Assembly: GCA_009869945.1 (NCBI GenBank)
Contig: WIXG01000077.1
Location: 124,001-188,000 of the forward strand
Length of the DNA: 64,000 nucleotides
Source of the DNA: Mesaphorura yosii
Lineage: Eukaryota; Arthropoda; Collembola; Poduromorpha; Tullbergiidae
Reading direction: 5' to 3'
Shown piece by piece: positions 5,561 to 61,376 of the stretch (positions are counted from its first letter, which is position 1; the number at the start of each line of letters is the position of its first letter). The notes beneath the pieces are model-generated. The model worked only from the letters and a program-made list of their open reading frames with translations, was not told the origin of the DNA and ran no database searches. The position numbers and the translations under genes are program-made.

Positions 5561-5696
5561 CCGTGCCCGAAATTGAAATCGAGTCAATACTTGGCGGCAG
5601 AGCAGAACTTCCATGTGATGTGAACCCAACGCGACGTGATGACTCCGTTCATATGGTTCTCTGGTTCCGTGATGATTTTGGTAAACCAGTCTATAG
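5561..5696 (+). CDS. side: side gene 1, exon 1 seen: start of Ig1
   Basis: Acceptor ttttccag, donor AG|gtaagt. It enters with two bases of a split codon and leaves two bases of the next. It encodes residues 1-44, with the B-strand cysteine in L-P-C-D-V and the core tryptophan in V-L-W-F-R-D. The mature Side ectodomain normally starts about here, so the missing upstream exon should hold little more than the signal peptide. Confidence 0.9.
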
Positions 5697-8600
5697 GTAA
5701 GTGATTCTTGTTTGATCCCCGTCTGTCAGCCTGTGCATTGTGCAGAAGAATGGAAGGTTGACGGGTTTAGCGGACGATTTTCTACCCCTTTGATTAAGTC
5801 ATGTATTATTTATCTCGACTGCTGGGCGGAAGATGGATGCGCCTTCATTTCCCATTTTCCACGCATAATATGGATAGCCTTGCAGGAAATGCAATGCAAA
5901 CAAAGAAAGGGCGAGTTGCAACCTCATTTCTTGCGTTGTGTTCAGAGGAATTAGGAAATGGCGCCTGGGGACAAATGAAATTCAAAATTAGCTCCTGTTC
6001 CTGCGATGCCACATATTCAATTAAGAATCCCGTTCTGATATTTCACGCATGTAGTAATTTGGTCCAAATTAAATTTACAAGGGAATTTCTCAAGTTAATC
6101 GTCAGAATAGAATGGGATAAACTTGCACTTTATGCAAACTCGCTGCTGGTGAGGTGAATTTGCAACTTAAAAGTTTCTCGGAAACTTTTGTGGGAGTTGC
6201 TGCGCAGAAACGACTGATTAGTCATCATTGCAATTATTTTATGTCTAAAAGTCGTTCATTTCCATTTCCGTTCGCTCGTGATGGTGATTATTATCTTGTC
6301 ACCTCCTCCAGTAGTCGAATCACATTTACAAAGCAGAACGAGGAACCTTATAAGCTGAACCCTAAACCTTGTTCTATAGAAGTTTGCGTTGCCCGCCTTC
6401 AGGAGTCGGGCTGACGGAAACGAAACTGCACATTACAATAAATAAAGGGGCATTACTACATGTTGTAACTTTTTTCTATTTTCTATTGAATGACAGTTTG
6501 GATGTACGTGGAAAGCCATTTAGTTCCGCGCGTCATTGGTCTTCATCAATGTTATTTGGCACACGAGCCCATTTCCGGACTGTTACCGAGCCTGCACGCC
6601 TTGTGATTGAAAATGTCAAATTGACCGACGAAGGTAAAGTGTTCCGAATAATGTGTCTGGATGAAACGTTATATGTACTTCCACAACCGGGCACGTCCCA
6701 CCGCTCTGTCCTGCCTTGCCGTCGCTGGCGACCAAACTGCCGGAGCGGTGAAACATTCATGAACACGTGTAAATTGTGAGCGAAGGAGGAATAATTAGTT
6801 TTCTTTCGCTCGTACATCTTCACCGAAAGCGCCCATTTAGTCAATCTAATCACTATGCTCTCTTCCTGTTCTGTCTGCTCACAGGCCTCTACAGATGTCG
6901 GACTGACTTTAAGAATACTCCAACAAGAAACTTTCGCTTCAATCTCACTGTTTTAGGTAAACAAAATCCTTACACACTTGCCAAGCCAAGTCACAAGTTT
7001 TCACTCTCCACGTGCAGGCATTCGGAAATGAAAGCTTGTGTTGCGATATGTTTGAGATTCGAGAAATCAAGGGAAGTAAGAGACGTAGAATGCAGACATC
7101 AAAAATTCATATTCATGTTGCATTCCGCACTCTTATATCGCACACCTCAGCGCAACATATAGGTTCATTTCAAATTTGAATAATTAATTGGTGTGCGTCG
7201 GAATTAATGCAAAATGGAGCCTGAAAATTCAACGTGGGAGGTGGATGCATGCACACGAAGTGTGGGCTTCGGAGGCATTTCGATGGCTTCCTGCTCACAC
7301 ACTTTTAATTTATTCAACGACTCATCATTCATTCGTTCCTGTTTGTTTTCTGCAGTGCCTCCGGAATCTGTCTCAATCCATGATGCCAGCGGCAGACTCC
7401 TCACAAGCGTTGTGGGCCCGCTGCGGGAAGGCTCGGATTTGTCGCTCGCCTGTAAAGTTCGTGGAGGTAAGGCTCGTTCGCTCATTCACTATTTCAAATT
7501 CGAGCTCAGATCAAAGTATAAATTGTGCTCAGATTTTATAGCTTACTGCAAATTGCTGTATCGTTTTCGTATTCTGAACAAGAACTAACTTCAGGGTTGA
7601 GAGTATTTCAGCAAGATTTTGATTCATTTTATTGTATCCAGAGATGAATCATATTTTGATCGAAAACCATTCCATTTCCCAATGGCTCTCTGTGCTACTC
7701 TTGAATCAGGGTATTGACAATACAATTTTGGGAAGGAATCCTTTCGGCTGTAAAAGTATATGATATCGTAAAACTCAAAGCGTAGTGCATAATGTAACTT
7801 TATTATTCACCTGAGCGTGATTTGAGTCGCAGGACCGTTGAATCATGTGTCTTCGTTCAACGTCCTTGTGTTTCTTTCTTGTGCGTAGAGATTGCGTACC
7901 AAAAAATTCATAACTTCATGATTCATATCCCTGTCCAGTTTCCTGCACGGTTCTGGTGCAGATTCCATTATGAATTATTTAGACGTTTGTATTGTTTTAC
8001 CTGTCTGTCACCTGTTCTGAGACGCTGATGCTCCCATAAATATTTAAAGAGACTGCAACGTGAAAGTTCTCACCAAGTACATTCGTCACTCCCCATGAAG
8101 CTCAAGGTTCAACTTCCAAATTATTATTCGGGTTCTCATACGTAGGCGTAGGCCCCCTTCTGCCGTGTTGGTGTTTCTAAGAATGTGCTACCGTTTCACT
8201 TAAAAAGAGATTGGGACCCAATAATTAATTTCATGCGTGCACGTTAAATGACCACCCTCGTCAAATGCTGCTGCCCACGTGCCAGAGCGGTGCAGGTGCA
8301 GACTCTTTTAGCTGTCCTAAGCCTAAACCCTCTCTGTAATCAGTTACCTCACAATTTAGTCTGTAGGTTTGCCTTGCCTTCGATACAATCGCCTGATTCT
8401 TTCCGCTGTCAGAATTTGCGCAATCGTGCAAACTGAACAAAAACACGATCATGAAATGTTAAAGAAACTTACACCAAAATTGTGTTCTGCAGTGAGAAAG
8501 CAAAATGCAATTTCCTTTGATGAGTTTATCGGAAGAGTGTTCCCGCCACCCATGCACCCTCGGCCCACATATTTCCTGAACTGTGCATGATGCGATATTG

Positions 8601-14600: not shown

Positions 14601-17600
14601 CTCGACTGTACGCCAATCCGAGGCCAGACTGTGTCCCGCTGTGTCGTGTAAGAAAACATAATTACAACAGTAAAAGCAACACACGAACCTTAACAAGGAG
14701 TTTACTGCCTGACTTACTTTCTCCTTTCCAAAATGGAAACCTGGCTGAGAGAAATCCGAATGCTCACGCTCGTAAAAGAAATGTAAATGTGTAGAATTAT
14801 TTCTTATTCCAGTTCCTTACGCCATGTACTCTACATTTTACAACCAACCATGCGTAGCATGCAAAGTTTAATTTCGTGTTGTCGTCGTCTTTTCGAATGA
14901 AATAAAATTTGTACTTTGCACACATTAACTTGCTTTTATATGTGCAGCTTGTCCTCGCGTCCTTTTCCGGGTTGTGTGTACGCGTACGCGAAATGGTATA
15001 AACATATTAGCCTACTGTGACTGTGACTTTGTGCCGTATTGGTCTCGAGCGTTCGTGGCTCACAGGCCCGTAGTCAAAGAGTCAATTTCAGTTAATTGCT
15101 TCGCAAGATATTTTTCATGTCCCAAAAGGAATTAATGTTGCTGCTGTTACACAGGCACTCTGCACTGGCTGTCTCTCCTCGTGAATGTGAATATGTACAT
15201 ATTATATTTTGTTTTGGCGTGCCTGCAAAAAGTGATCGCGAAAGTTGCACCGAGTCTCAAGTGTATTTTAAAGGAAGAGCAGGCGCCTAAGACAGTTGCG
15301 TCGTGAGGGAGCACGAAGGGAAAATAAAGGCAGACGTCTGGAATTTAAGTCGTCTCATATTATGTTTACGCAACTCAACTTGGAATTTCGAAGCTGCCAA
15401 GTACGCTTTGCAGGAGATGGGCGAGCAGTGCATTGGTTCTAATTTCTAATCTTTCCTGTTCATGAAATGTAATGGCTCGGCTCGCCGCGTGTGCGTCACA
15501 TCAAATTTGTTGTTGCGCCATGAAGTCAACTCACACTCGATCCTCGGCGCAGTCATGCAAGGAATTGAGTTGTGTATTACATGGCGCGAGTAATTACAAT
15601 GCCATAAAAATCACAAGCCACAAGTTAATTAATGTACTTGAGACGTGATCTTCCTTGACTCTTGACTATTAGCTCCGAGACCTCTATAACCTCAGCCAGT
15701 TTCAGTCAGCCTGTCAGTTAGCGCGACGATGAAGAACCACGAAGTGTCAAGAACCTCGGAGGCAGACAAGAAGATTTTTGTATTACGAAACGCAAGCTAC
15801 GCGAAGCGAGTAAAAAATGAAGTCAAGTCAAACTTGTTGTTTCCCACTTACAAGTTCACATTATCGTCAAACGTGTGCAGCGTGAATGAAGAGTACATGC
15901 CTGGCATAAGCATAAGCATAAGTTACAAAAGTATTCGAAAATGAAACTGAAAACTATCTTTCTTTTCAAAAAAACAGAAACTTTCATCTTCTTCTCGTGT
16001 GCCATGCGTCGTGAATGCGTGAGGCGTGAGCGTGTGTGTCCTTTTGAATATTTTATATTACAATATGTTTACACTTTCTCCAGAAGTAGGCAGCCAAGAA
16101 TGGAAACTTCTTTAACAATACGTAATATCATAATAAATATTTTGTCGGGCCGCTGTGTTGTGCCCCGTGCGGAGTCGGTTCGATGTAATGCGAAAGAGTG
16201 CCAGTGCCACAGTGCAATGAGCAACAATGTACTCGAGGGATTTTAATAAATAAGAAACGAAAAACTCTCAACAAAATGTTTCCTACTTTCGTCTCTTTAT
16301 TTGCTTTATTTTATTCCGTTGCTATTTGGACCAATTTCCATTTATAATACTCGTATGTCCTGTTTGTGCGTTTCAGGAAAGCCCACACCACACATTGAGT
16401 GGAGAATAGGAGAAGAAAGACTGCTGAGTAATGAACCAATATATCGTTACGAGAATGAAGATGTTTATACGAAACAGCTGCGCGATGTTCAAGTTCGCAG
16501 GGAACATCACGGCCAAAATTTAACCTGCTTAGCGTACAATTCAAATTTGAGCGATCCATTAAGTGAAACACTTCGTCTGACACTTTACCGTAAGTCAATC
16601 TTCTGTATTCCATGTTTGTATTTCTATGTCTTGCCGTATTTGTAACATTCCCTTCTCGAAGTTGTGACGTAGCGCGTAGCGTTTGCTCAATCCTCACATA
16701 GTTCCTAATTCGCGCTCGCATTGGCGTTGGCATTTCACCATTCGCTCTAAATAATCTTGTCTGTCCTAATCAATAACTGGAGCGAAGTCTGTCTGCATGC
16801 ACGCATGCTGAGAGACAGTTTAAACTTCAGTCATTTTACGACTCGACTGCAATTCTCACTAAAGTAGTAAACTCAAGTCAATGTGCAAAACTCTTCACGA
16901 TTCACTGTTCTTGATGCCCAATTCTTGTGTCTGAGACCGAGACACGACATACGAGAGATGGAGACCTTAGATAAATCTTTTAGAATATTACGAAGATGTA
17001 TGCGTCTATTTTGCCAAGCAGGAGAAAGTCGTACTACACGATCGCACGTTGTAGGAGGCGCATGAGGCCGTTGTGCAGGAAGGTTAAAAGTGAAATAATG
17101 CGATGTACGTGCTGCAATTTTCTTTTGCTAAAAAGTATAAAATGTATGGACGTAGACGGCGTAATAATAACACGAAGATATCATGAAGAGATAAAGTGAG
17201 AGAAATTAAGTTTCGTCTTCTCTCTCCTTCGTTATATTCGTATCACATCTTTATCACTTTGCAAATGCACGAACTACGAACACGAACTCGAGAGTACCTG
17301 CCGTAGAACTTTATGCGTGAAGAAATTCTTTGAGGACGTTTCGCCCGCAATGCATTCGCCCTTCGCATTTCACATCTTTCACAAAGTACACACTTCGTGT
17401 CGAATTTTACATTTCATCCTCCTGTGAAGTGAAAGACGAAATGGAAAATCGAGTCCGGAGCTGTGAGAGAATGTAAAAGGAGATGACGACGAATACGCAC
17501 TTGGTTTGCCCTTTCGTACTCCTCTCCCTGTACGCTGGCTGAGTACATAGAGACAGCGGTTCACATCTTTCGCTTTGTTACTTAAGTGAAGTGGCATAAG

Positions 17601-20600
17601 ATGAATGGGTTCTTGATCTTATTAACCCATCTCGTTCTCTCACACTCGGGCTCCTTCTCTCTATCTGTGTCTCTCCTTTTCATTCCCTTGTCTTGTTATT
17701 ATTATTAGTACACACGTCGAGTTCAATTAAACTTGATTAGATAAGAACCGTGAAAGGAGAAGGAAAGGAGAGCGGGCTCAGCTTGCATGTGCCGTGCGAG
17801 CGAGCGACACGAGCTGGTTGGTTTTTTTTGCTACGGGCGCCCAACTCTAACTCCGTCGAGTCTCTCGTTCCACTCCATGGTCTTCGTTTTCTTTCATTTA
17901 CTTGTAATAATGTTTTTGTTTCAAATTTACTCATCTTCCTCTCTCCATCTGCTTGCAGTGCGACCGCTATCAGCCCGAATCAATCGACTCGAGAGACTCG
18001 TGGCCAACCAGCGACATGAGATTGAGTGCGTGGCTACAGGGTCAAGACCCGCTGCCATGATTACGTGGTGGAGCAGTGGAAATCGACAACTGACGGACGT
18101 GACGATTTTGGTAAGCGCCTTATTACGCCGTTTGTGTTCCCCCGCAGCAGATCCTCTTGACCAAGACCAAACCAGGGTTGTGTGTCGGGCCTGTCCTTAA
18201 TTTGTGCTCGTGGCGACTCTCTTCTATTTCTGTTCGCTCACCCGTAGCACGACAAAATCCCTCCGCCACATAACCCCTCCGAGATAAAATCCCTCCGACA
18301 AACACGAAGGCTTTAGGGGTGGAAGAGGAAAGACAAGATAGGAAGTGCCTGTGAACTCGGCTACCCGTCACAAGGCCGGGTTGTTAATTAGGCACGTTGG
18401 GTATGGAAAATTGGAATAAGCCGAACAGGCAAGAGTTTTTATAAAAATTCGAACCGTTATAAAAGAAAAGAGTTGTAAATATAAACAAGAAATACATAAA
18501 ATTTTCACAGTAAGTGAGTAAAGTATGTATGGGTAATTATAAGTTAGACAGCTCTATGTTATGTTCATTCTACAAACTGAACAGTGTGTCTAGTGGCTAA
18601 TGATGTAGACTGAACTCGGCTTTGAAGGTTCATAGTTCGAACCCGCGACAAACCATGTTACTCTGAAGCCATATTTTTGTGTACATCCTTGGAGGGATTT
18701 TGACGGAGAATCTTACGAAGGGATTTTGGCAGAGGGATTCTGTCGTGGATTCCCGTCACCAACCACTGCGCTAGCATGGTGGTGTGGGATTAAATAATTT
18801 TGGTCGCGTCTCCCAAACCCGTAAGCTAATTAATTGATTAAGCGAGCCCGCATCGCGCCGCCATACGTACACAGAACAAAGTGCCCATGCTAGGAGAAGT
18901 CGCCCTTTATAAACTCAATTGGACGTTAGTATTAATTTTCCCATTCTTTGCAATGGGTAAGCCATCATTTGTATGACGCTATAACCAGCGTGCTCAAGCT
19001 AAATGAGGCTAGTGCCAGCCGTTTCACGGAATCTTAGTCTGCTTCTATTTCCTTGCTTGCTTCACAATCGTAACTTTACAATATTTCCGGTTTTAATGTC
19101 ATGAATATGCAAATCAGCGCGTAAAATCCTTCTCTGAACACGGGCGCCGTTGTCGTACAACTTACGACGGCACAGTTCATTAAATTTATTATTCCGACAA
19201 CTGTTTAACTTATAATGATCTCAAGTGTGCAGCGCAATTTAAACATGCATACATCATCCCAAGTGCACGGGCTCGAGCTCGGTTGTAAAAATATTTATCG
19301 TCGCAGGGTGAAATCGAACCTAGAGTCGTAAATACTTTCTTTTTATGGTTATTCACTTATTATAACATCATAATTTATGCTCCGGGTGCATGCAATTTGA
19401 AGTAGAGTTATACTAACTCTGTAAGTTAGCATATGAATTAGTGTTTCTAAAAACTTGGTAGTGTAGTGCTGGATATTGTATGAGACTTCATGGTTTCGAG
19501 AATATGGACTAACAAAGAAACTGTGCATTTCTTCGAACTGCTCATTTCAGACTTTGCGCAGCGTCAAAGCAGCTTCAGAATACCAGTGAAGCCAGATTAC
19601 AGTGACTGCAACTGGTCGTAACCATAAAACTGAGGCTTACTCAAAAATCGCTGTAATAGCAGAAGCAGAAGAAAGTCAAAATATAAAAATCTCCTGAATT
19701 ATTGACAAAGAAACGTATTCATGTATGCTTGACATGCTATCAAACTTCCGTTTCACATTAACTTTGTGTACATACCGAACGTGAGTGCGGGGTTGCTTTT
19801 TCTCTTAACGTGCTCTGGCACAGTAAATGTAAATGCTTTTCTTAATCTCCCCAACACGTACATGGAACGCAGTTCGCTCTACTGAACTCGCACCCAAAAT
19901 AATAAACTCACTTTCACTTGGATGTTATCTTTGCACTGCACTACCGCCTTGCTCTGATGACAAAAGTAAATATTTCATTTTCTAATACAGCTAGCGTACC
20001 GTTTTTATTGTTTCGTAAACCTAAATACAAATGGCCGTAAGGAACATGGAACATATTTACTTCCATAAAGTAAAAGCGTTCACCCTTGCAACTCATTGCA
20101 AAGAGAAGGTGGAAAAAAGTAGGTGGTTCATTTTTATTGACATTAACTTTTATTACTGCACTGTACAGTTCTACAATGCAATGAATGCCAGACTCGAACA
20201 CACAGCGCACAAGGCGATCATAGCGAGAAGCACTTCATTTAAGTTTTAATGACGTGTTGCAATAAATGTGATGTCATGATGAACATAAACAATACACTTT
20301 ATCATTAATGTTCATTTTTCCAAGATTGGGCCGTGGCCAGGTGTGTAATAATTTATAGCCGTGTGTCATAAAGGCTAGCGGGCCAGAGGGAGAGTGGGAA
20401 ATAACCAGAGCGCATGCACGAGCAGTAAACAATGACTAACCACTTTTCATTAAAGTAGAGCAATGCTCGCAACGCAGGTAAGCTAAGGTGCAGTGGTCGA
20501 AATTTGTTATGGGCCTTAAGTAAGTAATAGCCGATGTTAATAGCTTAGTTTATGACCGAGGACGATGATGATGGGTTGTAAAAGTTTACTCAAAATTGAT

Positions 20601-32797: not shown

Positions 32798-33008
32798 TTC
32801 TAAAAGCTATATTAGCGAAAGCCCACACCCGTGTTCGAGTTCTTCATGTTCACGCTAGTATTATGTGAAATTATTTTCTATTTCGACGTCGGGAATGCTT
32901 GGTTTAAATGTCTTGTCCGTGACAAGCCAGTGTTGTGAAATATGTACGTGTTAAGAAAATGAAGCTTAGATAAGAAACATTGTGCTGCTGCATGAAATTT
33001 AAGAAACG

Positions 33009-33014
33009 AATAAA
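33009..33014 (+). promoter_or_regulatory. Poly(A) signal of side gene 1
   Basis: The canonical AATAAA lies about 210 bases after the stop codon of exon 14, the first such hexamer in a sensible position. It implies a short 3' UTR; longer forms cannot be excluded. Confidence 0.6.
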
Positions 33015-48000: not shown

Positions 48001-48428
48001 ACACACAATCGTTTTTCTGCTATTACTCTCTTATATTTCTTCGTGTTCGTAACGCGAAACGACATGACGAGGATTTTCGTTCACTTTCAGCGTCTGTCGA
48101 GAAACGAGCTTCTCCAGTCCACGCCAGGATTATCGGCCATCACCTAACCTGATGGAGATTGGGGAAACTCAAAGATTCAGATGTGGACCTGGGCCATTAC
48201 CCTACTTGCGAAACGCGGCGCAAAGCAATATCGCCAAAATCCTGCGTTTTAACTACTGGGGCTTGCTCTTCATTTTGTTAATTTGAGCTTACTTCATGCT
48301 CGTTCAAGGTCTCCTTTGAGGAGTGCGTGCGAAATTGTTGTAACACTCTTTGGTTTATAATTGACTACGGTTGTTAGCTTTGCTAACGTTTCAAGCAGAC
48401 TTCACATTGTGAAGTATTTGTGATTATT

Positions 48429-48446
48429 TAATAATAATAATAATAA
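48429..48446. repeat. (TAA)6 microsatellite
   Basis: Six perfect TAA units in the interval between the two side genes. Confidence 0.9.
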
Positions 48447-48910
48447 TTGGCCGCATTTATTTCCAGAAAAGTAAATACGCAATAATTTTATGAACGTTTC
48501 CCTTGGCAGGGCTATTAAACATGCATCTTGCAATTTGCGCTTAACGCTAGATAATAAATGCAATGATTATTTCTCTGCCTTATCAAGTCGCATCGCATTT
48601 CTTGAAAAATTTTACAAATGTTGAACGGTTATGAACACAAATGAAATAATGCCGACTAAATTAGCATAAGAGATCGGGCTTGGAGGATCTTTTTGTAGGC
48701 GGAAATCCGTCCAATTACATTTACCGGTCCGATTTCTACTTGCATGCTGTGAGTACACCAAATCTTCTCTAGTTCAAAATAGGATTGACTGCTGTCGCGA
48801 CTGCGACCTGACTGCCATACTCCACCAAAATTTCCTTTTACTCCAAAGAAACGAAGACAAACCCATCCAAGAGCAGTCTAATCGCGAATTGCATTGAATA
48901 TAATCCGTGA

Positions 48911-48959
48911 TCACTGAAGTTGAAGTGAATGACTGTATCAGATTGATACAGTTCAGTGA
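48911..48959. repeat. Inverted repeat able to form a hairpin
   Basis: ACTGTATCA, a 3-base loop, then TGATACAGT (48932-48952) is a perfect 9-bp stem. The outer TCACTGA (48911) and TCAGTGA (48953) can pair across a 14-base bulge on one side. It lies in the gene-poor interval; no function is evident. Confidence 0.55.
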
Positions 48960-51900
48960 TTTTCTATATCCTAAGTCACGAATCCGAGCCCTGCTGGTCT
49001 TTCCATCTTACACGCAAGCGGACAATAATGGCTTAGTTTTTGTTTTGATATGATCGAAAAATAGAGAGGAGAGCAAAAGCAATGTGGTTCACAACCCACG
49101 TATTGGCCACTGGCGAAGAGAATTGCTTTCTGCGAACTGTAGAATTGCGCATTGCATTACTCAAAAATCTTGCTGGTGGCTGGTGTACAACATGGTCGTA
49201 TTCGATTATTATTGCCAAATTCTCAACTGAATTGGTGTTCGACTGGAAGAGATCACACCGCCAAAGTAAAATCACACATGGAAACACAAAATCAGGTCGA
49301 AATACAAGCCCCATGAAATAGGACGCAGATTCGAATTCGGACAATAAATCCTTATGGTCCACAGTCCGCAAAGGCCACCGTTCACGCTGGTTTGTTACAC
49401 TTTTTATGTTACACTAAAGTAGCAGTGGGTCAACACCCTCCATTATTGCGAATTCGGTTAAGCATTTTGGTCCTAACCTCAACAGATTCGACTACGATGT
49501 AAGAATACAATTTTCTTCTTTCTCTCCGCTTTCGCTTTGAGTACTGTAGGAAGTGAAAATCTCATAACTCATGTGCTGTGAAGATTTAAAATTGTCAAAA
49601 TAAATATTCTTAACTTTTCAACTTGGGAACACACTTAATGTTGAAAATAAGCCTCGACAAATTGAAATGTAACAGCGAAACTTCACGCGGATGGAGAGAA
49701 AGTGTCAACAATTTAAAAGTTGAAAAGAATCTCAAGTAGCAATTTCATCCATCACTCATGCAAAGCTCAAAGCTGGGGACGGGCACGGGATTGGTGCAAA
49801 TGTGACGTATGAGCGTGAAGTAGAAACACGAACTTGTGGTGAATGAAATTTATTTCGAGTAATTCTATTCTCATGTGAGTTTCGAATTTGTCAAAATTAT
49901 TAATTGGATATTTACCTGTGAGACTCACACCATGCATGACAGCACTTCTGTCAAATCAGGATAACACTGACGGCGTTGACTAGAATGACAAATTGGCAGA
50001 TTTCAGAGGAAGTAATCGGTGTCATTGCAGGCTACGTTTTTAAGAATGCGTCTTATCCATCTTGTAAATCGTCTGTCAGCATGTCAGCATTTAATAATAT
50101 GGGTTCAAGCAATGACAAAAAGGCCAGCTTCAAGATCAGCATCATTTGTCTTTACTCACGCATCTGCCCAGTTAAAGTGGTCGCTGCTCATTAAGAGAAT
50201 CACCATTTCGAAAGCTAACTGCGTGTAATGCGAGTGAACACAGTAAAGGGCGGAGGAAAAAGTGAAAACTCTGCGATAGATTTGACTCTGGCACTACATC
50301 ACGCCATGTTCAAAAGATACGCGAGTCGTTAGTTTATCGTTGTATCAAGTGCAAGTTAGCGTCATGCAGACCCTAACATAAACAGAGCAATATTTACACT
50401 GCCACTGCATGAAAGTGAACTTTTAACAACAACAAACCATGGATTACTGTGCCTATTTGTGAAAAGTATTCGTTATCTCGCTGGCATGACTGACTCAAGA
50501 GCAGGAGAAGATGATCTCTTTGTTGAATAAAGAAGTTATTTAATAAAGAGAGCAGAACGAAAATTTACTTAAAATGCGGGCATCGCCGTGCTCGTGCCCT
50601 GGCTTTGCTTTTGCCCGCGTGGCAGTTTCCTTTGCTTTTGCCGTTGCTTTTGCCAGTTTGTTGATAATAATAATATGATGCATAATGGAAGAAGAAAGGT
50701 TGGCTTGGCTGAGTTCTTTCAATTTTTTTTTACTTTCTTTGATCTTACGACGAGTTCAGCCCCGACGCCGTTGCCTTGCCTTGCCTCGACGAGCGTTTTT
50801 CCATCCGCGTCCGTGCTCTCGTCTCATCATTATCATTACAGAAGCCATTATTGTTGCTATTATTGCGGTTAAGGTACCTTTATTTTTGTAAACGAAAGCC
50901 AAGCCTCTGAGCCTCAAGAAGTCTCAATTACAATACAGTATGCAATTTAAACTTAATGCACGGTTCGTGCTATGCAATGTGCAGGTATTTTCTCCCTGAA
51001 CGGGTCCCAGAGAGATAACAGGATACAAAAATGTGCATTGGTCTCAATTTTCTTGCCTCTTTCAAGATCCTAGGTTGTTATCGTTTACCTGGAGCACTAA
51101 GAACTCTAAACATACGGTTTAGGTTATTGCATTTGTTTACGCAATATTAATATGATTGAAGCAAAATGTTTGATCTTCTTGTATTTATAACGTTGTAAGT
51201 GATACTACGAGTAAGCGAGTTAAAAGTATCCAAATATTCAGAACTCAAGGCAAATTGTGAGCGCAAAGATGGGCGGAGCTGAGAAATTTCATACATCTTT
51301 CATCTCACTCAATTTAAGCAATTTAGTCAGAGCAAAGCGAAGAATCCTTTCCGAGGGCCTTAAGCCAAGGTTTAGGGTTCTAAATACCGTAATGTAAATA
51401 AATTGTAAATGCGATAAGCCGTGAAAGAGTGATGGTTTTGCATGTCGCCAGAAACTCGTGGTGGTACAAGTGTGCAAACATCGTGCATTTCTCATTTAGG
51501 CAGTCATGGTGGATGGAAATCGGACAGGAAAATAGATTTCGCTTGAAATGGCGTGGTTGTCCCATCGGACTTGACCAAATATTTTTGTGAGATTAATGAA
51601 TTTAAAACCGCAGCTCAATTAACATTATTCTCTTAATTGATTTTGCGTGATCCTCGCTCGAACAGATGGCAGCGGGCAATTAAACTTCTGACCAGCCTTC
51701 GGGATCTCGGACATGGAAAAGGAAAGGGCTCTGAGTACAAACTACCGTAAATAATGGCTATAACACCACATGCGCAACTTAGAGAGAGAATTTATCATTT
51801 TCTTTTCGTGATAAACTTTCTCCTGCTCTACCATTATTATTTCAGTCGAGCATGCATTCATTGCATTCATAACTTTGGCCAAGTCAAACACTCCTACTGG

Positions 51901-54900
51901 GCAACTTTCCTCCTCAGTTTGGAGTATTATGAATACAACGCGTTTATACTTTATACGGTCCATTGTAGTATGGAAATTACAAACCATAAAACGTACAATA
52001 AATCGCGATACCAGATACTCACAAATGCCCTTTGGTCAAGCGCGGACGCCTCAACGCACTACCATACAAAATAGAAATGGCCAGCCAAAAGCCAGAACTC
52101 GCTGGAGCTTGCCGTGCGGTGGCAGTGCCCATAAAGGTTGACAGGCTAATATGCTGGAGATGCTAGTTTATGTGCTGTAAAAATATATTGCCAAATTCGG
52201 GTTTCAGAAATTAGATTGGGACCACAAACTCAAACTGCGCCAACACACCCTCCAACTAAAAACTCGATTTACGCCGTCATTCGTCAAACGCTTGTGGGCA
52301 ACGAGCTTTAAGCAATGCAGTGTATTCGATCTTTCTACTTGATAGTGAGCGACTGTGCAATTCCGAAATTCCGATATAAACCTTCAAGTTTTCCCCAAAC
52401 TTGATGTCCTAGGCAAAAACAGTTTGATGATCTACGGAGACCACGTCACTCTTCTCCAACCTTAAGCGGAAGCAACCACGGATCAGCTACTACAACAGAA
52501 AGTTTCCGTATCGCGCGCGTGTTACGATCCCAACAATACCAATGACATCAAATCAATTCCAGGTTCTTGAATAAATAATGCATAAATTGCTTTGCACGAT
52601 AAAATTGCCTTCGCGCTGTTCACTCTGCCAAGTGAAAAGAAATTGGCTTGATGAAAGTTTGGAAGTGGGTCACTGTTTCTGTGCACAAGACAAAGGCCTC
52701 TCCACATCAGTAATTCGGTATAATTATGCATCCTCATTACTCCTGTCTTGTGTGTCTTGAACTAACGGGAAGTGCGTCTTACGCAGATTTCAGGCCTTGG
52801 ATATTAGCAGCTGATGTTTAAGCGAGGAAGACCTCCGAGCCAAAATCATTTCAGTACAGCCAAGTTTGCTTAGGATCGGGATCAATCTTCAACCACCTTT
52901 GCGTTCTCAATTTTATGTTGCTATGATATCCTATCCCTAAAATCGAACCCGTTTTCCTTTGCCTTTCGAGCAGGAATAAGTGCAGAAACTTTGTTTATTT
53001 CGGCAGTATATAAGACAGAGCAGGGAATGAGAAAATTCAATGTCCTTTTATAGCGGTGAATGTGCATTAAACCACTTAAGGAATAGACTGAAACCCTAAT
53101 TTGCTTACTAATGACCTCTGAGAAGCACTAAGCAGCAAACGATCGAAAGTTCATAAATATTGAGAGCAATCCAAATCCACTACAACCACAACATTCAGTA
53201 CGGGACAACGGCGACGAGGAAAGCGTCCAAGTGGTATAGTTTGTGAATCAAGATAAAGCTAGGCACGAGTTATTCCAAACACAGTGCAGCCAGCCTCTGT
53301 GCCTCTGCCTTACAGAGGAATTTTATTGCAAGCGCATAGGAGACAAGTTGAATCTCAACAATCACGGTCCTGTATGCCGTATCATGCCAATGCTTCCTCA
53401 CATTGCATCACGTGTTGGATACTAGATCCATTAGAAGTTAACTTTCTGTGCCCAATAATGAGCCGATCAACCGTCTTGGCTTGGTCTTGGTCTTGTCGGT
53501 CGAGCTTGTAGCTCATTTCAGGTCGAGGGAAGACAGGAACCGCATTGGATAGGCCGCAAGTGCGTGCATGGTTCAATAAGCAATGAGGCTCATGCAATAC
53601 GCCCAGATCAATTTAATTCAACTTTACTCCATAAACTTCAAAGTCAAATTGAGAATCTCAATTTCAAAACTTTAACCTCTCGATTACTATGATCATGATC
53701 GTGGCCGTACTAAAAATTGTGAGATAAGTTCGCTGCACTAAAACAAAAGGGATCTCAGAGCAAGCGAACCTGAAAAATGCGGTCTTAAGTTCAGTGTCAT
53801 TTTACTGCATTACTTGAAGTGTTATGGCGTATGCGTATGCATAATTTGAAAAATGGAAATTTTATACCGCACATCCTTAAGTTCTGCTGAAACTTAAGAC
53901 TTTCGTTCGAGGGTTTTGTATCCGATGTGCTTTTTGCAGGTTACGTCATGCCTTAGAAGTAATTCGAGTATATTATACGGATATCTTCTTCGATTCCGTC
54001 TACCATCATGCACTGCGGTTGCAGTGGTATTTTCATTTTTATGATTACAACTACCTATTCGATATCCCATTTGCCATTTCCATGCGATTGTCTCTTTACT
54101 ACCTTCCGCCTTCAAATTTTCAGGTTTATGGATTTGAAATTGTGTCAGTGAGCACAATGCGGGCTTGAAAATCTCAGCCAGCCAGGCCTGGAACTGAAAA
54201 GCATCTAAGAGATTAGAGGTGAATCATAATTCATTATTTTTCATTTTACTCAAACCTGCTTTTCATATAAGTTTCAGCCGCCCGTGAGTGGCTATAGTGC
54301 GTATATATGGTATATGGAGAAACTCTGTACTCAAAAATAGTCCAGAGGGCACTGAAAATAAATAATTGCAGTCTTTCCACCTTCCAGTAAAATATTGTTA
54401 AGAAATGTCAACATGCACATGAATAATGTTACCTCACAGTATAACAATATGATTTGTTATTTGTAGCACAATATGTTCGACGTTCGATCCCTTACGCTTG
54501 TCGCACAACGCACAATATGCCACGCGCTGCATTTTTGTGATGTCAACTTTCCTGGTGCAATAATGATTCATGAGATTCAGGATGCCGATAGAGTAAGTAC
54601 AGGGAACAGGGCAGGAGGAGAAGGCACCACGACTCAGGAGAGCAGCACTTGAAAAAATATGAACGATCGTTAGTTATGGCTTGGCAATGGCCGTACGCAT
54701 GCCTTTGGAGAAAGCCGATTCGCGATGCAGGCTCGGTTACGGTTTTATTGGTAGCGATATTATTTACAGTAAATAACTCAACTACTTTCTTTCTCCTCTC
54801 GTGAAGTGAAGTGATGCATTGGCAAAAGGTGCATCATCCACCATCGCCATCGCGTCGCCATTGGTAATTTCATGTATAATGTATATCGTATTTTATATGC

Positions 54901-56629
54901 ATTGTAATATTTAAATATTTTATTTATTTCCCCATTCAATTTTTATGGAACATTCTTGTGCTGCCTGCTGTCTGGCCTAGTCGTCTTCTGTACTGCAGCC
55001 AATTCGGTGCATGAATAAATTTGTTATTGAGTATTGAGTTGACATCGGACTAGAATTTATTCAGCGTGCAACCTACTTCGAAGTTCGCAACGGAGTCAGG
55101 CCCGGTTGAGCCCATTCACTCATACCTTTCCCGGAAAATCTTCTTATGCGAATAGTCTTTAAATAGACTCATTCATATTCACACTGTCTCTTAAAAAGTG
55201 TTGTGCAATTAAGCTTTAAAGTCTCGCCACCCACACGATGTCAATTCTAAATAGTCGAGGATGTGACACTCTTTGAACCAGGGGACAGAATCATGAAACC
55301 CGAACCTTGAGTGCGTGGAATCTTGTGAATTCTTTCTACAAAAGTCCTATTTCATATTTACCTATTTAAGGACAGGGCGCAACAACCTTCGCCCAACTTT
55401 TTGCCTCAGTACAAACATTGTACGCATACTTTCCAACTAATAAAAAAAGTTTCGTCTTTGTCTGCTGTGAAGAAGATTCTCAGCCAACGGAACGAAGTTC
55501 AATTCTCGTCTCTTTTTAAAGTTGTTGCGTTTTACGTTGGCGTTTGAACAGACAGGCAGAGCACAACCGTAAACTCTTTCTTCGAGAAAGATGGGATAAT
55601 GAAATCTTCGAAGAAAGGAGAAAAGTTAGACCATGCATGACTTTTCACGAATACTGATGATGTCTTTTTATTCATTTTTTTCATACTTGCTGCGCGCCAT
55701 GGCCCAGACGCAAGATGATCGGACGGCTTCACTGTAGGCCTTGCCCGTGTGCGTCACGCAATTCTTTTCTTTATCAAATAGTTGAATCTTTAAGCAACAA
55801 GAACAAGTTTCAGTTTCTGCATTCTCCTTCCCGTCTCGTCTCATCACTCACACTATTAAGGAATTACAGCTTGCGCCTCAGCTGCAGTGGATATACTCTG
55901 GATACGGAAATAAGAAGGAAACCGGCAGACGAATCGTCGTCCCAAGTCTCGGTCGCTCCGATTCCAGCACGTTAAACTATGGCGAAGTGCAATCATAATA
56001 ATAGTCGTTAGCATCTGTGTTATTATGTGAATACGCCTTTTATAGAGTACTTGATTCACTTTTTCCAAGTCATTGATAATCCAAGTCTCGCGAAGTATCG
56101 TTTTGAGGAGAATAAATACTTGTAGTTAAAGTTGTTAACACGGCGAGCCCTGTCTGTATGAGCATAGCCGAGTCGAGCTGACGAAGGATGTGTAATGGAG
56201 CCACTTTTGAGACTCGTCCTCGTGTGTGGATTTGAATGGCAGACAATTTGAGTGAGATGTGATATTTTATGATTTGAAAACGGAGAAAGAATGAGCGCTC
56301 GATGGGCGAGAAAGTAAGGTAATGCTCATCCAACGACTGAAACACCTTTTCCTCCATCGTGTATTGTTTCAGGAATATGTGCTTGGGGTATTGGCTATGG
56401 CAGTGATACGACGCACAATAAAAAGGACGTGGAACGCGCACTTAATGCTGCTATACATATTGAAGTAATGGCCCGTCCTCGTTTCTCGTCCTGCCTTGAC
56501 GAAAGCAGTGCGCAGTGTTATGATGTGTAATTCGCAGCAGCAGTGTAATGCCCATTGAAGAGACAGCGACAGGTATAAGTGTCAGTTTCTGTCTCCAGGT
56601 TCGCTTAATGGAGTGTGAATAAAAAGTAT

Positions 56630-56683
56630 TTTATTACAGACACCCAAAAATATGTATTAATGATATTTCAGAGTGTTTTTATT
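56630..56683 (-). promoter_or_regulatory. Candidate poly(A) signals of the second side-like gene
   Basis: On the minus strand two AATAAA hexamers (56683-56678 and 56635-56630) lie about 420 and 470 bases after the stop of the terminal exon. Either could end the transcript; the sequence does not decide between them. Confidence 0.4.
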
Positions 56684-57101
56684 ATTGCAATATCGCACAT
56701 ACGCTTTCACTTTTACTACTACGCACGCTACACATCCATGCATTATAATTATGCATTCTTCTCACTTGTTCATAATAGCCGTATTAGATTTCACATTTAG
56801 ATATCTTAGCACATACCACAGCCCTGCCTGCCTGGTACGGCTACATGATAGCTTTGTGTATCGCGAATAGAGTATAAGAATACAAAAATCGAAATTCTCT
56901 ATAAAATACAGTAGCAATAGGAGTAGTACATGTAAGTCTTTTGAAATTAGAATTTGTGTTTCCAAACCATTAATCCTTTCTTTGTACTGTACAGCGAAGA
57001 AGTACACAGGAAAGTTGGTATTTTAAAAACAGGTTCGCATTTAGTGCACGTGGGTTTATGTTTAATAGATTCTGCACGCGCGATGCGATGGCGGACTCGA
57101 A

Positions 57102-57251
57102 CTACACACAACTTTCTGGTAATTGATTAGATGCTAATTGCTGTCCAAGTACCCTAGAGTCAATATTTACAACCATTGTGGTCGGCTGTCCGTGGAGAGT
57201 TGTCCCGTACGCCCCGACGTCCACGTTCTGCCGCGTTTCCAATTGATGGTG
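57102..57251 (-). CDS. Second side-like gene: terminal exon ending P-E-S-C-V
   Basis: Acceptor gtattttatag, phase 0, then 49 codons and TAG. It begins H-H-Q-L-E-T-R-Q and ends N-Q-L-P-E-S-C-V. The last five residues equal those of gene 1, and the 11 bases GAAAGTTGTGT are identical in both, so this is very unlikely to be a chance ORF. The exon is too short to stand out as an ORF. Confidence 0.82.
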   Translation of the reverse strand, partial: HHQLETRQNVDVGAYGTTLHGQPTTMVVNIDSRVLGQQLASNQLPESCV

Positions 57252-60200
57252 CTATAAAATACAAAAGGTAATGTTACTCGATACAGCAGTGAATCGGGCA
57301 AATAATTATTAGTGTCAAATGCACAGTTATTTGCGATTAAAATGGACAGACTGAGAAATTATGGTTCTCAATTTCCGCGCCGAGCTTCTGCTGTGCACTG
57401 CACAGGAAGTGATAATGAATCGTCGAGTTGATTCGCAGTTCGCAGGAGAATGCAGGTTAAATGTGAATGGCGAATCGTGAGTTGTGCTTTCGGGACATGC
57501 CACATGATGAGTCCCTTGTGGTCACCGTTAAACAAAAATTTCCACACAAAATTCCGACAATTATACGCTCAACTCGGCGGACGGGAAGATTTAGTACTTT
57601 TCAACTGTCAACTTGAGACAAAACAAAATAATATATTATCCGTCACGGTGCTGCTGCTCTTGCCTTGCCTACTCTGCTTCCGTCTACCGTGCGCTGCACT
57701 CGAAAGTTTAGCACGCTGGATTCTCCAGCTGAATATGAGCCGGATTCTACGCTCGAAAGAAGTTGTGATGTGTTCAGGGAATTTTAGTTTATTTACGAAT
57801 TCCAGACAAGTGACTGTATTACTGGAAGCGAAATTAGTGCACAGTGCTGAGGGTAATGGCATCATGAGCCATGAATTCCAGCAATTACATTCACCGCGGA
57901 TGCACGATGTTAACCCGCGCACCATGTAATGATGATAATGAATTACTGGATCCTGAAAATGAACTTTCTCTCGCGCATCACACTTTCTTCACCACACCGC
58001 TCACGTCTGTCCGTCTTTGTTTTATTCTGATCAGGCTATTCCGCTCATTCTGTTGTTGGTACAATAAATGATGTTTTTTTTCCTGCTTCCTGCACTGTGC
58101 TCCGCTTCGCTTGCTTACCTTTATAGGCAACCCATTCGGTTTTCCACGAAATACGGTGTAATTTGACATACTACAAGGCATTTGCTGCTGCTCCATTGTT
58201 GTGAGAGGGAGGTCAGGCTGTCCAGACCGCAGAAGATTTTTTTCCACCATGTTGAGAGGAGGAGTAGACGACCCGTAGCGAAGTTGAGTAATTTCTCCGT
58301 TACTCAGACGGGAGAAAGAGTTACCAATTCTGGGAATTGCTGCAAAGAAGGAACAAAGAACTTTTAGTGTTAGAGAGTTGGAGTTGGTGTTAATATGCAC
58401 GAAATTGAACCACTTGGCATTTGGAAATGTTGGCAGCGGAAATCAAGCTGTACAAGTAAATAATATTAATTCTAATTCTTGGAGGCCTCGAATGCGGCTC
58501 TAATGCGGGCAGACGCAGGAAACAGGTACAAATCACGCGCTCATCTAAAATTGTTGAACCTCGCTCTCGCATTAATTAAACTGCATGAATCAAATGCCCT
58601 ACTAACTCTTAAGCAGGTAAACGTCGCTGTGATTCTGCGAAACATGCAGTTTGTGCATGCCCACCCGATATTCATAATTCTATTTATAGGCGAAATTATA
58701 ATCCTCTCCGCGTCATGCAATACACCAAAGTTGGAGTTCCTGTTGACAGTTTGAAAAATTGGATTAGCAGACAGGCATACAGTCGAGGCGAGTATTTGGT
58801 CTTTGATTCTCGTTGATCAAAAGCCTCACACAACGATGAGGCTTTCACTGTGTGTTACGATTACGGTGAAAACCTGGATTCCGAAATTCACCTGCCGTTT
58901 GAGCAGAGGAGCAAGCGATGTAATCAGAAATTTCGACTTTGTAAGCAACACAGATTCGCGTCGAGTAAAACGAACACTTTGTGGAGATTATTTTCCACCA
59001 CTTTCCACGCTATCTGCACGGTATGGCATTATTATTTTCAACTCATCAGATACTTTTAATCCTTCAATTTCACTTCGTCCTCATTTTAAGCCTTCTCTAG
59101 AACATGCGCTGCCACAAAGTGCAGAAAGTGGCCTCGCAATTTATAAAAACAGTAGCGAGCTGCCAGCTGCTTTCATTTTCCGCGACAAAACAAACCACAC
59201 ATACCCATATGATATGCGTAAGCATGGACGTAGAGTAGACAGATATTTCATAAAACAATAGGCTCGCCATACTACTAACAAATCAGAGCACTTCCTGAGT
59301 TTAATCCAACATTTAACATACAAAACCCAAGCTAGACACTGACACCGTCAGTATAAATGTATTTGCAGCTATGTAGTACGTACTTTGGCGAAAGAGATGC
59401 TTACAAGGAAGGCTTAGTTCAAAAGACTCAAGTGTGACTAAGCATGTGGATTTCCTTCCTTTTGTGCGAAACTCAATACTTAACTTGAAGAACAGTTGAA
59501 AAGGCGCATTGTGCTTTCTCTCTGTGCGTCTGGTTTTCGGAAGTCGGGAACGCACTTGGCGTTAGTGTTGACCAAAATAATGAGACACTGCGAGTGGTTA
59601 ATTACTTTGACTATCTGCTCCTCTTCGATTCCATGACTTCGACTTTCAAAATTTCTAGCCTAATTGGTTCGGCTCAAGTCGCTAAAAATTGAAGTCCAAA
59701 TTACCCTCAAGTAGAAATTAACCTTTATTCGGTCATATCGCGTCGTTAAGAATCACGCACGATGTGCATAACAGCAAAACTTTTGCTAAAACTAAAAATC
59801 CACGCTCGCGAAACGATTATCTTTAAAAAATGCGGGAAATTCTGGCCCCTAGATGTTTTATGGTAGCAGAGGCATTAGCGACATGCATTAATGTAAGACA
59901 ACGGCACGACTCGAATTTGAAGAATCATGCCATATTCAGGCTTGAATGTCCAAAGTGTTAGCTGGCACGATTCTGACTGAAATTTAATGGGCTGGAATTT
60001 TATCATCACTCAAACAAACCGTTTTATCAATCAGAATAATGGTACTTTTTGGCAATCAAGATACGAAATCTCAAACAAAACCATCATCAATCAGACGAGT
60101 TTTTTTTCATATTTCGCACACGTAAATTCAATCATCCATCAAAAAATTCTTTTCATAACTCACTAAGATTATAATCAGAATGGGAGAGTCAAGTTCAACA

Positions 60201-61376
60201 TTTATTGCCGAAATTCGAGCTTTCTTAGCTCCAAGTGAACGCTTTCTCGTTTCTGGCCAATTGAAGCATCTTTCGGGATGAGGGCACTGAGACAAGCCCC
60301 TCCACAACAGGTAAACCGTTAACAATTATAATGCTTCCGAAAAATACGCATGGACAAAAAGGATTTCTCACAACCAGTCGCATTAAAACTGATACTGTGG
60401 TATGGGAAATACCTGGAGCTACAGTAATTTATTTGTCTCAATGACGCTCCAGTTTTCATAACGAGTTTAGCATGTTGCACCAATGAACTCGTCGAGGGCT
60501 CTAGTCATTCAATTGATAAAAAGCATTATTTGAAATATTAAAATGATTCACAAAAAAATATTTTATAAACACATTTATTTGATGGATAAAAAGATTTTAA
60601 AATTCGTATGACGGTGATTGCTATTTTCATTTATTGCTAATTGATAAAGGTTTTATTTGGATGATGGTTGAAATATACCCCAAATTTAATTACGTACCGA
60701 TTATCATTTTCAAGACCCATTTGCTAGCGAGATTCGTTTATTCTTTGCCTTTATCGCCGCGTCTGTACGAGTGTACAAACGACATTCAAAACGCCAAATG
60801 GAAATGCGAGGTGATGAAATATTTATGTAACATTGTAAGCTTTTCAGGAGCCGATGGAAAGAAGTGCGAGGTGTTGAGATGTGATGTGATGAGAAAGTGT
60901 TTTGTTTTGATGATGTCTCTAAACAAGAAATTGCTCGCGCGTTTAGATGAGAGAAGCGGCCGGAAGAGAGAAGCATTAAAAAGTTACGTAATGTGTTTCT
61001 CGACTCGCCGTACCATTTTTGGAGGGGATTAAATCTGGATCACCATCATCTTCTCCGCTGTACATGTTGGCCACAATGTTGGTCTTTGTAAATGGATTTT
61101 CCATTGATGAAGCATCACCACCACCGTCGTGATGAGGTTTTTTATTGTTTCCCACCGAATGATGATTGTGATATAATTCATCATGTGTTGAGGAACGACG
61201 CGAGTTGCGGAACTCATGACTAAATGATTTGTTCAGTTCAGGATTCGTGCTGCTGCCAATTGGATGGAGTCTTCGATAGAGGAGAAATGCAATTAGCGAG
61301 AAGAACGCTACGGCGAATGCTGCACCAGAACCAATTATAAGAGCAATTGTTGTTTTCTCCAAGTCTCGTATTTTCG
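57102..61376 (-). CDS. Second Sidestep-like gene, 3' part: transmembrane and tail exons
   Basis: Three minus-strand exons (61376-61014, 58339-58119, 57251-57102) join in phase 1 and phase 0 to give 243 residues: a transmembrane helix about residues 8-31, a basic stop-transfer (Y-R-R), a long polar tail with G-D-P-D-L-I-P-S at about 111-118, and the C-terminus L-P-E-S-C-V. The order, intron phases and end motif match gene 1, which faces it from the left. The FN3 and Ig exons should lie beyond 64000. Assignment to Side rests on the tail motifs and the shared gene structure, since the ectodomain is not in view. Adhesion or guidance function is inferred. Confidence 0.82.
58119..58339 (-). CDS. 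Second side-like gene: middle tail exon
   Basis: Acceptor cttctttgcag and donor AAG|gtaagc on the minus strand; phase 1 in, phase 0 out. It encodes A-I-P-R-I-G-N-S-F-S-R-L, then a polar stretch with L-R-S-G-Q-P-D-L-P-L-T-T-M and S-N-Y-T-V-F. No known domain. Support comes from the splice sites and the phase fit on both sides. Confidence 0.78.
61014..61376 (-). CDS. Second side-like gene: transmembrane exon
   Basis: The acceptor (minus strand) is a strong pyrimidine tract ending tttgcag. The exon enters in phase 1, as exon 12 of gene 1 does. It encodes I-A-L-I-I-G-S-G-A-A-F-A-V-A-F-F, then L-L-Y-R-R, a His/Ser/Asn-rich tail and D-P-D-L-I-P-S-K-N. The proposed donor G|gtacgg is weaker than consensus but sits at the position used in gene 1. 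Read-through instead would add 12 residues and stop at 60976. Confidence 0.83.

What the first reader, a model, noticed from the sequence alone, without database searches (positions are those of the whole stretch)
5561..61376. Two Sidestep-type genes arranged tail to tail
A near-complete Side gene on the + strand faces a second Side-like gene on the - strand, with about 24 kb of gene-free DNA between their stop codons. Convergent duplicates may share 3' regulatory DNA or arise by inverted duplication. I do not know this arrangement from described Side loci, but cannot search for it.
Basis: partly seen in the sequence, partly recalled or inferred. Interest (0 to 1): 0.7.

Follow-up and report, generated by a model that had tools for sequence, protein, structure and literature searches.

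The report
Tail-to-tail Sidestep-family receptor genes
Two nerve-wiring cell-surface genes of the known Sidestep family lie tail to tail about 24 kb apart, and the same genome holds two more such pairs, unlike the scattered Sidestep genes described for the fruit fly.

Summary
Gene A (+, window 5561-32797) and gene B (-, stop at window 57104-57102) are both Sidestep (Side) genes with open exons. Both match solved Drosophila Side-IV Ig1 best (E 3.9e-46, 2.5e-39). The 24,304-bp spacer shows no recognisable gene.

The assembly has at least nine Side genes. Three contigs each carry a tail-to-tail pair: A/B, D/E (14.8 kb between stops), and a Side 3' end facing F (9.3 kb). All five neighbouring same-contig Side pairs run in opposite directions. 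Li et al. 2017 say no Drosophila Side genes are clustered. Seven presumed C termini read ES[C/T]V, PDZ-ligand-like; one was found by that motif alone.

Inverted duplication is likely for D/E (76% identical), unproven for A/B (46%). No inverted non-coding DNA stands out. Shared 3' regulation has no support here. The genes are ordinary; the recurrent pairing is modestly new. No related genome is held, so synteny is untested.

The parts
5561..5696 (+). Gene A exon 1 modelled (Ig1, first part)
   Evidence: Side-IV Ig1 match
6497..6633 (+). Gene A exon 2 (Ig1, middle)
6885..6956 (+). Gene A exon 3 (Ig1, end)
7356..7466 (+). Gene A exon 4 (Ig2, first half)
16377..16589 (+). Gene A exon 5 (Ig2, second half)
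17959..18110 (+). Gene A exon 6 (Ig3, first half)
   Evidence: counterpart in B found; 3' boundary less certain
20929..21166 (+). Gene A exon 7 (Ig3, second half)
   Evidence: 5' boundary less certain
22665..22795 (+). Gene A exon 8 (Ig4, first half)
   Evidence: nine matches genome-wide, itself included
24347..24506 (+). Gene A exon 9 (Ig4, second half)
28298..28591 (+). Gene A exon 10 (Ig5)
29242..29541 (+). Gene A exon 11 (FN3)
   Evidence: Pfam fn3 E 4.3e-05, 24.1 bits, just under the 25-bit cut-off
30743..31018 (+). Gene A exon 12 (transmembrane stretch and DPDIIPS cytoplasmic motif)
31509..31651 (+). Gene A exon 13 (cytoplasmic, predicted from splice sites only)
   Evidence: same phases as B's cytoplasmic exon
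32372..32797 (+). Gene A last exon, ends PESCV-stop (TGA 32795-32797)
32798..57101 (.). Spacer between the two stop codons, 24,304 bp, no recognisable gene
   Evidence: Pfam, 15 of 16 frames of 100 aa or more; Rfam; tRNA; ORF and codon statistics
57102..57251 (-). Gene B last exon, ends PESCV-stop (57104-57102)
58119..58339 (-). Gene B cytoplasmic exon (predicted from splice sites only)
   Evidence: best-scoring exon in the interval, phases fit both neighbours
61014..61376 (-). Gene B transmembrane exon with DPDLIPS motif; the rest of B (12 modelled exons, Ig1-FN3) lies right of the window at contig 188,702-216,673

Best explanation
A and B are two long-diverged paralogues of the Sidestep family with open exons: single-pass membrane proteins with five Ig domains, one FN3 domain and a cytoplasmic tail ending in a PDZ-ligand-like ESCV. 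They most likely act as membrane-bound partners of Beaten-path receptors in axon guidance or synaptic matching. That function is inferred from the family; only sequence and arrangement are shown here. In this genome Side genes are grouped, the neighbours that share a contig are in opposite orientation, and three pairs lie tail to tail. The simplest origin is repeated local duplication with inversion of a Side gene, followed by divergence. Shown: the genes, their order and their orientation. Inferred: the origin (about 0.55), the Beat-ligand role (about 0.85 from family knowledge), PDZ binding (about 0.6). The confidence below is for the genes and their arrangement, not for the origin.
For: Exon-by-exon collinearity of A and B with matching phases at most boundaries. 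The best solved-structure match is Drosophila Side-IV Ig1 for A, B, E, G and H, and Side-VI for the Ig1 half found of F; Side-IV, VI and VII together lead every one of these lists. Nine Ig4 first-half exons genome-wide, on C77, C79, C91, C169 and C243, with other exons placed. D/E: stops C79:92,500-92,502 (+) and 107,318-107,316 (-); 76% identical over 317 positions, grouped with 100/100 support. C91 carries a + strand Side 3' end (presumed stop 10,407) facing F (presumed stop 19,702). The TM plus [DN]PD[ILV][IV]P motif is present in 8 of 8 Side 3' ends read. D/E: pN 0.15, pS 0.75 over 254 codons, 5 of 6 segments used, so old and constrained.
Against: A/B sisterhood is not resolved: it depends on where the tree is rooted, and a tree separating A from B is not rejected (AU p 0.24). 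No inverted similarity outside exons stands out in A/B or D/E. The D/E spacer contains other genes, a CRAL_TRIO-like frame and a Cys-loop receptor, so D and E are not immediate neighbours. Five of five opposite-orientation neighbours has a 1 in 32 chance under coin flips, so it is only suggestive. No Side exon was found in the 38 kb of contig beyond H's presumed stop, so H has no facing partner there. No related genome is held, so conservation of the arrangement is untested.
Confidence: 0.9

Rival explanations
1. An older Side gene cluster of the arthropod ancestor, with genes in alternating orientation, was kept here and broken up in flies. The pairs are remnants and not independent inverted duplications.
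For: Even the closest pair, D/E, has near-saturated synonymous sites. C77, C79 and C169 hold two or three Side genes each, and C91 holds F plus a Side 3' end. Drosophila Sides are reported unclustered.
Against: D/E group as sisters firmly and F/G with moderate support (87/73) in the tree, which points to at least some local duplication. That F faces G itself rests on an unproven contig join.
Confidence: 0.3
2. A tail-to-tail pair is a maintained regulatory unit whose shared 3' spacer controls both genes.
For: The spacer between A and B is large (24.3 kb) and apparently gene-free, and three pairs have the arrangement.
Against: No similarity between the three spacers. The D/E spacer holds unrelated genes. 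Neither chromatin nor expression data exist here.
Confidence: 0.12
3. Assembly artefact: the facing pair is a misjoin of inverted repeats or of two haplotypes.
For: The assembly is fragmented (1127 contigs), and several Side genes run into contig ends.
Against: A and B are only 46% identical, so they are neither haplotypes nor a repeat-driven inversion. The same arrangement recurs on two other contigs, and window 20-64 kb has no long inverted repeat (longest 32 nt at 78%).
Confidence: 0.04
4. Chance: a few Side genes scattered over a small genome happen to face each other.
For: Only five neighbouring pairs exist, and all being opposite has a 1 in 32 chance under random orientation (my arithmetic).
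Against: At least seven of the nine genes share a contig with another Side gene, which random placement in 93 Mb would hardly give.
Confidence: 0.15

Closest known systems
Drosophila Sidestep family (Side, Side-II to Side-VIII), closest solved member Side-IV
   Same: Five Ig plus FN3 plus TM architecture (Li et al. 2017, section read). Ig1 of A matches the Side-IV chain over residues 6-122 of 122 (E 3.9e-46).
   Different: Drosophila Sides are reported as not clustered; here at least seven of nine share a contig with another and three pairs are tail to tail. One-to-one orthology was not established, because only Side-IV, VI and VII Ig1 were available.
Drosophila Beat gene clusters
   Same: Closely related paralogues of the partner family are encoded by clustered genes (Li et al. 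2017).
   Different: Beats have two Ig domains; neither the orientation of the Beat clusters nor the Beats of this genome were looked at here.
Sidestep expansion in the crustacean Parhyale hawaiensis (55 genes)
   Same: Increase of Side genes in a non-insect arthropod (PMC5111886, passage seen).
   Different: No arrangement is described in the passage seen; here nine genes were found.

Membership tests
Sidestep (Side) family | Five Ig domains followed by one FN3 domain | tested here: met
   Ordered exons in A and B. Pfam Ig families on both. fn3 is the only match for both FN3 segments, 24.1 and 23.2 bits, slightly under the 25-bit cut-off; it was not listed at E 1e-3 for the whole proteins.
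Sidestep (Side) family | Sequence similarity to known Side proteins above other IgSF | tested here: met
   A: Side-IV 3.9e-46 against best non-Side 6.9e-15 (SYG-2). B: only the four Side chains pass 1e-8, Side-IV at 2.5e-39.
Sidestep (Side) family | Single transmembrane helix and cytoplasmic tail | tested here: met
   Hydrophobic stretch followed by basic residues, judged by eye, in the exons at w30743-31018 and w61376-61014.
Sidestep (Side) family | N-terminal signal peptide | tested here: inconclusive
   One candidate for B 30 kb upstream of exon 1; only a poor candidate for A.
Sidestep (Side) family | Binding to Beat proteins through Ig1 | not testable with these tools
   Reported for Drosophila Side and Beat (PMC9743010, abstract and passages); no binding data here.
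One-to-one orthologue of Drosophila Side-IV | Groups with Side-IV to the exclusion of the other local Sides | tested here: inconclusive
   In the Ig1 tree Side-IV falls with C, D and E at weak support (86/61), not specifically with A or B; five of the eight Drosophila Sides were not available and gene I had no Ig1.

The most novel reading that the evidence does not exclude
Tail-to-tail pairing is a long-maintained organising principle of Side genes in this arthropod lineage, in which each pair shares its spacer as a control region so that two Beat-ligand specificities are expressed in a coordinated or mutually exclusive way.
Probability: 0.1. Interest if true: 0.65.

Novelty: new variant of a known kind. 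Interest (0 to 1): 0.35.

Why it matters
Side and Beat proteins form a receptor-ligand network that wires the insect nervous system. The fly literature describes Side genes as unclustered while many Beats are clustered. A genome where Side genes are grouped, with same-contig neighbours in opposite orientation and three tail-to-tail pairs, gives a way to date Side duplications and to ask whether paired Sides share regulation. The recurrent ES[C/T]V carboxy terminus also suggests that the cytoplasmic tails of many Sides bind PDZ proteins.

Tried and rejected
Inverted-repeat or palindrome origin traceable in DNA: rejected for A/B and D/E. In C77 the A/B matches are Ig1 and Ig4 exons (a third hit lies elsewhere on the contig); in C79 two of the three hits cover the FN3 and last exons and a third, 45 bp, lies about 500 to 700 bp before the stops; in C91 one hit is an Ig5 exon and one a 62-bp pair near 16.5-17.2 kb. 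Similarity between the A/B, D/E and G/F spacers: none. B and H as sisters because they share an FN3 intron and a similarly placed Ig1 intron: the one tree tested with B+H is rejected (AU p 0.004). Join of contigs C937 and C79 through a 75-bp inverted match: not accepted, because that repeat has seven copies, most near contig ends, and no target-site duplication was seen. Join of C243 and C91: likely (poly-C run at both ends, phases 2 and 1 fit) but not proven; the tail-to-tail pair on C91 does not depend on it. Signal-peptide exons: no secure result. A structure prediction of the FN3 exon was considered and not run. Literature searches for clustered or tail-to-tail Side genes showed listings in which I saw no description of this arrangement; I opened five papers, as passages or one section. 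Searches for Side-IV with PDZ and for the paper of the solved Side structures did not yield the primary papers.
Full report
Check of the observation. The window is contig C77, positions 124,001-188,000, of a 93.0-Mb assembly in 1127 contigs. A scan for Ig signatures showed a Side-like Ig4 exon in the frame at window 22592-22819. I fetched contig 188,001-248,000 and 114,001-124,000 and compared + strand reading frames of the left part with the right part. The matches are collinear and all on the - strand of the right part: Ig1a 216,674, Ig1b 210,916, Ig1c 210,539, Ig2a 207,346, Ig2b 206,428, Ig3b 202,411, Ig4a 195,417, Ig4b 193,722, Ig5 193,126, FN3 189,103-188,736, a cytoplasmic match from 185,176 and a last exon ending at 181,105. 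The missing Ig3a exon of B was found by its phases and its RPL start. Splice-site scoring gave 14 exons for A and 15 for B; the two genes split Ig1 differently, and B's FN3 is split in two. The cytoplasmic exons before the last one rest on splice scores alone. Stop codons: A at window 32795-32797, B at 57104-57102, with 24,304 bp between them.

Family. A fragment of A covering Ig1-Ig2 finds Drosophila Sidestep IV first among solved chains (9nq2, E 3.9e-46), then Side VII and VI, then SYG-2 at 6.9e-15. B gives the same four chains, Side-IV at 2.5e-39. Side-IV was also first for E, G and H, and Side-VI for the Ig1 half found of F. Ig1 of C and D was not searched there. Pfam gives Ig families on both A and B. 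fn3 is the only match of their FN3 segments but stays one to two bits under the curated cut-off.

Is the spacer gene-free? Of the 16 stop-to-stop frames of 100 aa or more in the A/B spacer I tested 15 against Pfam; none reached a cut-off. The best was 18.9 bits against a cut-off of 30.5. Rfam and tRNA scans of the whole window were empty. The spacer has more frames of 60 aa or more (127 against a mean of 92) and of 100 aa or more (16 against 10) than 40 first-order random sequences, but its longest frame (131 aa) is below the random mean maximum (154). Codon scores in the spacer (top 8.7 bits) do not exceed the highest seen in A and B introns and upstream DNA (top 10.8). The test is weak: A's and B's own exons scored only -5.0 to 9.0 when left out of training, so it can show long coding frames only, as in the D/E spacer (38.9). 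A gene made of short exons cannot be excluded.

Other Side genes. An Ig4a search of the whole assembly gave nine places, a lower bound. Whole-protein searches with A and B placed many of the other exons. Gene C: C79, - strand, 20.0 to 3.1 kb, running off the contig. D: C79, +, 79.1 kb to a stop at 92.5 kb. E: C79, -, 131.5 kb to a stop at 107.3 kb. F: C91, -, 51.6 kb to a presumed stop at 19.7 kb. G: C243, +, 77.5 to 117.3 kb, running off. H: C169, +, 72.6 kb to a presumed stop at 128.3 kb. I: C169, -, 10.1 to 2.5 kb, running off, very divergent. Two 3' ends without a 5' part lie at C91:402 onward (+) and C937:14.9 kb downward (-). The first fits G by splice phase and by poly-C runs at both contig ends. 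The second is probably C or I.

Arrangement. Neighbouring Side genes on one contig: A-B convergent, C-D divergent, D-E convergent, C91-left-F convergent, I-H divergent. So five of five are opposite in direction and none head to tail, which has a 1 in 32 chance for random orientation. Between D and E (14,813 bp between stops) lie a CRAL_TRIO-like frame and a Cys-loop receptor (Neur_chan_LBD, E 1.5e-20). Between C91-left and F (9,290 bp) a retrotransposon-like frame is suggested by eye; it had no Pfam match. What lies between C and D and between I and H was not examined.

Age and relations. Eight exon pieces were concatenated; Ig2 first half and Ig3 first half were left out, and C, E, F, G and I lack one or more pieces, G's presumed 3' end included. 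Over the shared positions A and B are 46% identical (495), D and E 76% (317), F and G 53% (328). Support for D+E is 100/100, for F+G 87/73. The placement of A and B is unresolved. Trees with A and B adjacent and one separating them are both allowed; the tree with A beside C, D and E and with B beside H is rejected (AU p 0.004). In an Ig1 tree with Drosophila Side-IV, VI and VII, F, G and H fall with VI and VII (94/88), while A-E sit near Side-IV without resolution. D/E synonymous differences are near saturation (pS 0.75) with pN 0.15, using 5 of 6 segments because one was out of register. By identity the other pairs are older still; their rates were not computed.

Cytoplasmic tails. A hydrophobic stretch followed by [DN]PD[ILV][IV]P is present in all eight 3' ends read (A and B; D, E, C937, C91-left, F and H). 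Seven presumed terminal exons end in ESCV (A, B, D, E, H) or ESTV (C91-left, F). These were not all found independently of the motif. A and B came from sequence similarity to each other. A genome-wide PESCV-stop pattern gave 13 hits against 8 for the reversed control, four of them at the ends of A, B, D and E; the other nine were not examined. D and E also agree in the residues before the motif. C91-left and F appeared as the two longest frames of their stretch. H was found by the motif alone. C937 has only an uncertain candidate ending in ESRI; C, G proper and I were not reached. Splicing of these last exons to the TM exons was modelled only for A and B. That such an end is a class I PDZ ligand is recalled knowledge; no binding was tested.

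Comparison with the literature. Li et al. 2017 (PMC5578738; [quoted passage not shown] they write of Drosophila. The Parhyale genome paper (PMC5111886, passage) reports 55 Sidestep genes, so expansions in crustaceans are known. PMC9743010 (abstract and passages) gives the Side-Beat biology through Ig1. A spider single-cell paper and a review were seen as passages only. I saw no description of tail-to-tail Side pairs in the listings of searches, which cover only the held open-licence library.

Verdict. Two ordinary Side genes in an unusual and, within this genome, recurrent arrangement. The host is probably a pancrustacean arthropod, because a Dscam-like Ig exon array of the exon-9 type is present; this is my reading by eye with recalled knowledge. 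Regulation by the shared spacer remains a speculation.

Noticed in passing
C442 about 33.0-37.6 kb, - strand; partly in L007: Eleven Ig exons spaced roughly 400-450 bp apart that, by eye, read like a Dscam Ig7 (exon-9-type) alternative array, near a 970-aa frame with more Ig matches.
   Followed up: partly
L073:3096-5431 and L074:3960-5765 (C79:96.1-105.8 kb): A CRAL_TRIO-like frame (just over its Pfam cut-off) on the - strand and a Cys-loop receptor gene on the + strand lie between Side genes D and E.
   Followed up: partly
C79:1-80, C268:12-91, C908:543-622, C601:177-251, C95:42-116, C937:14904-14978, C899:15130-15204: A 75-80 bp repeat with seven copies, at least six of them within about 620 bases of a contig end, so probably an edge of a repeat that breaks the assembly.
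   Followed up: partly
window 6633/6885 (A); window-equivalent 86723/86537 and 65002/64912 (B): Intron positions in Ig1 and FN3 differ between paralogues: A, D and E have an intron before the YRC motif; B has one after YRCRVDF and H a similar one after YRCRV; B and H have one in FN3 after DGGLPQ.
   Followed up: partly
C169:2505-10082, - strand (gene I): A ninth Side gene is far more divergent than the rest (29-35% identity) and lacks the DVYF stretch of Ig4 that the other eight have.
   Followed up: no
C243 right end and C91 left end: Both contig ends are poly-C runs, and the Side gene G appears to continue across them, so these contigs are probably adjacent.
   Followed up: partly
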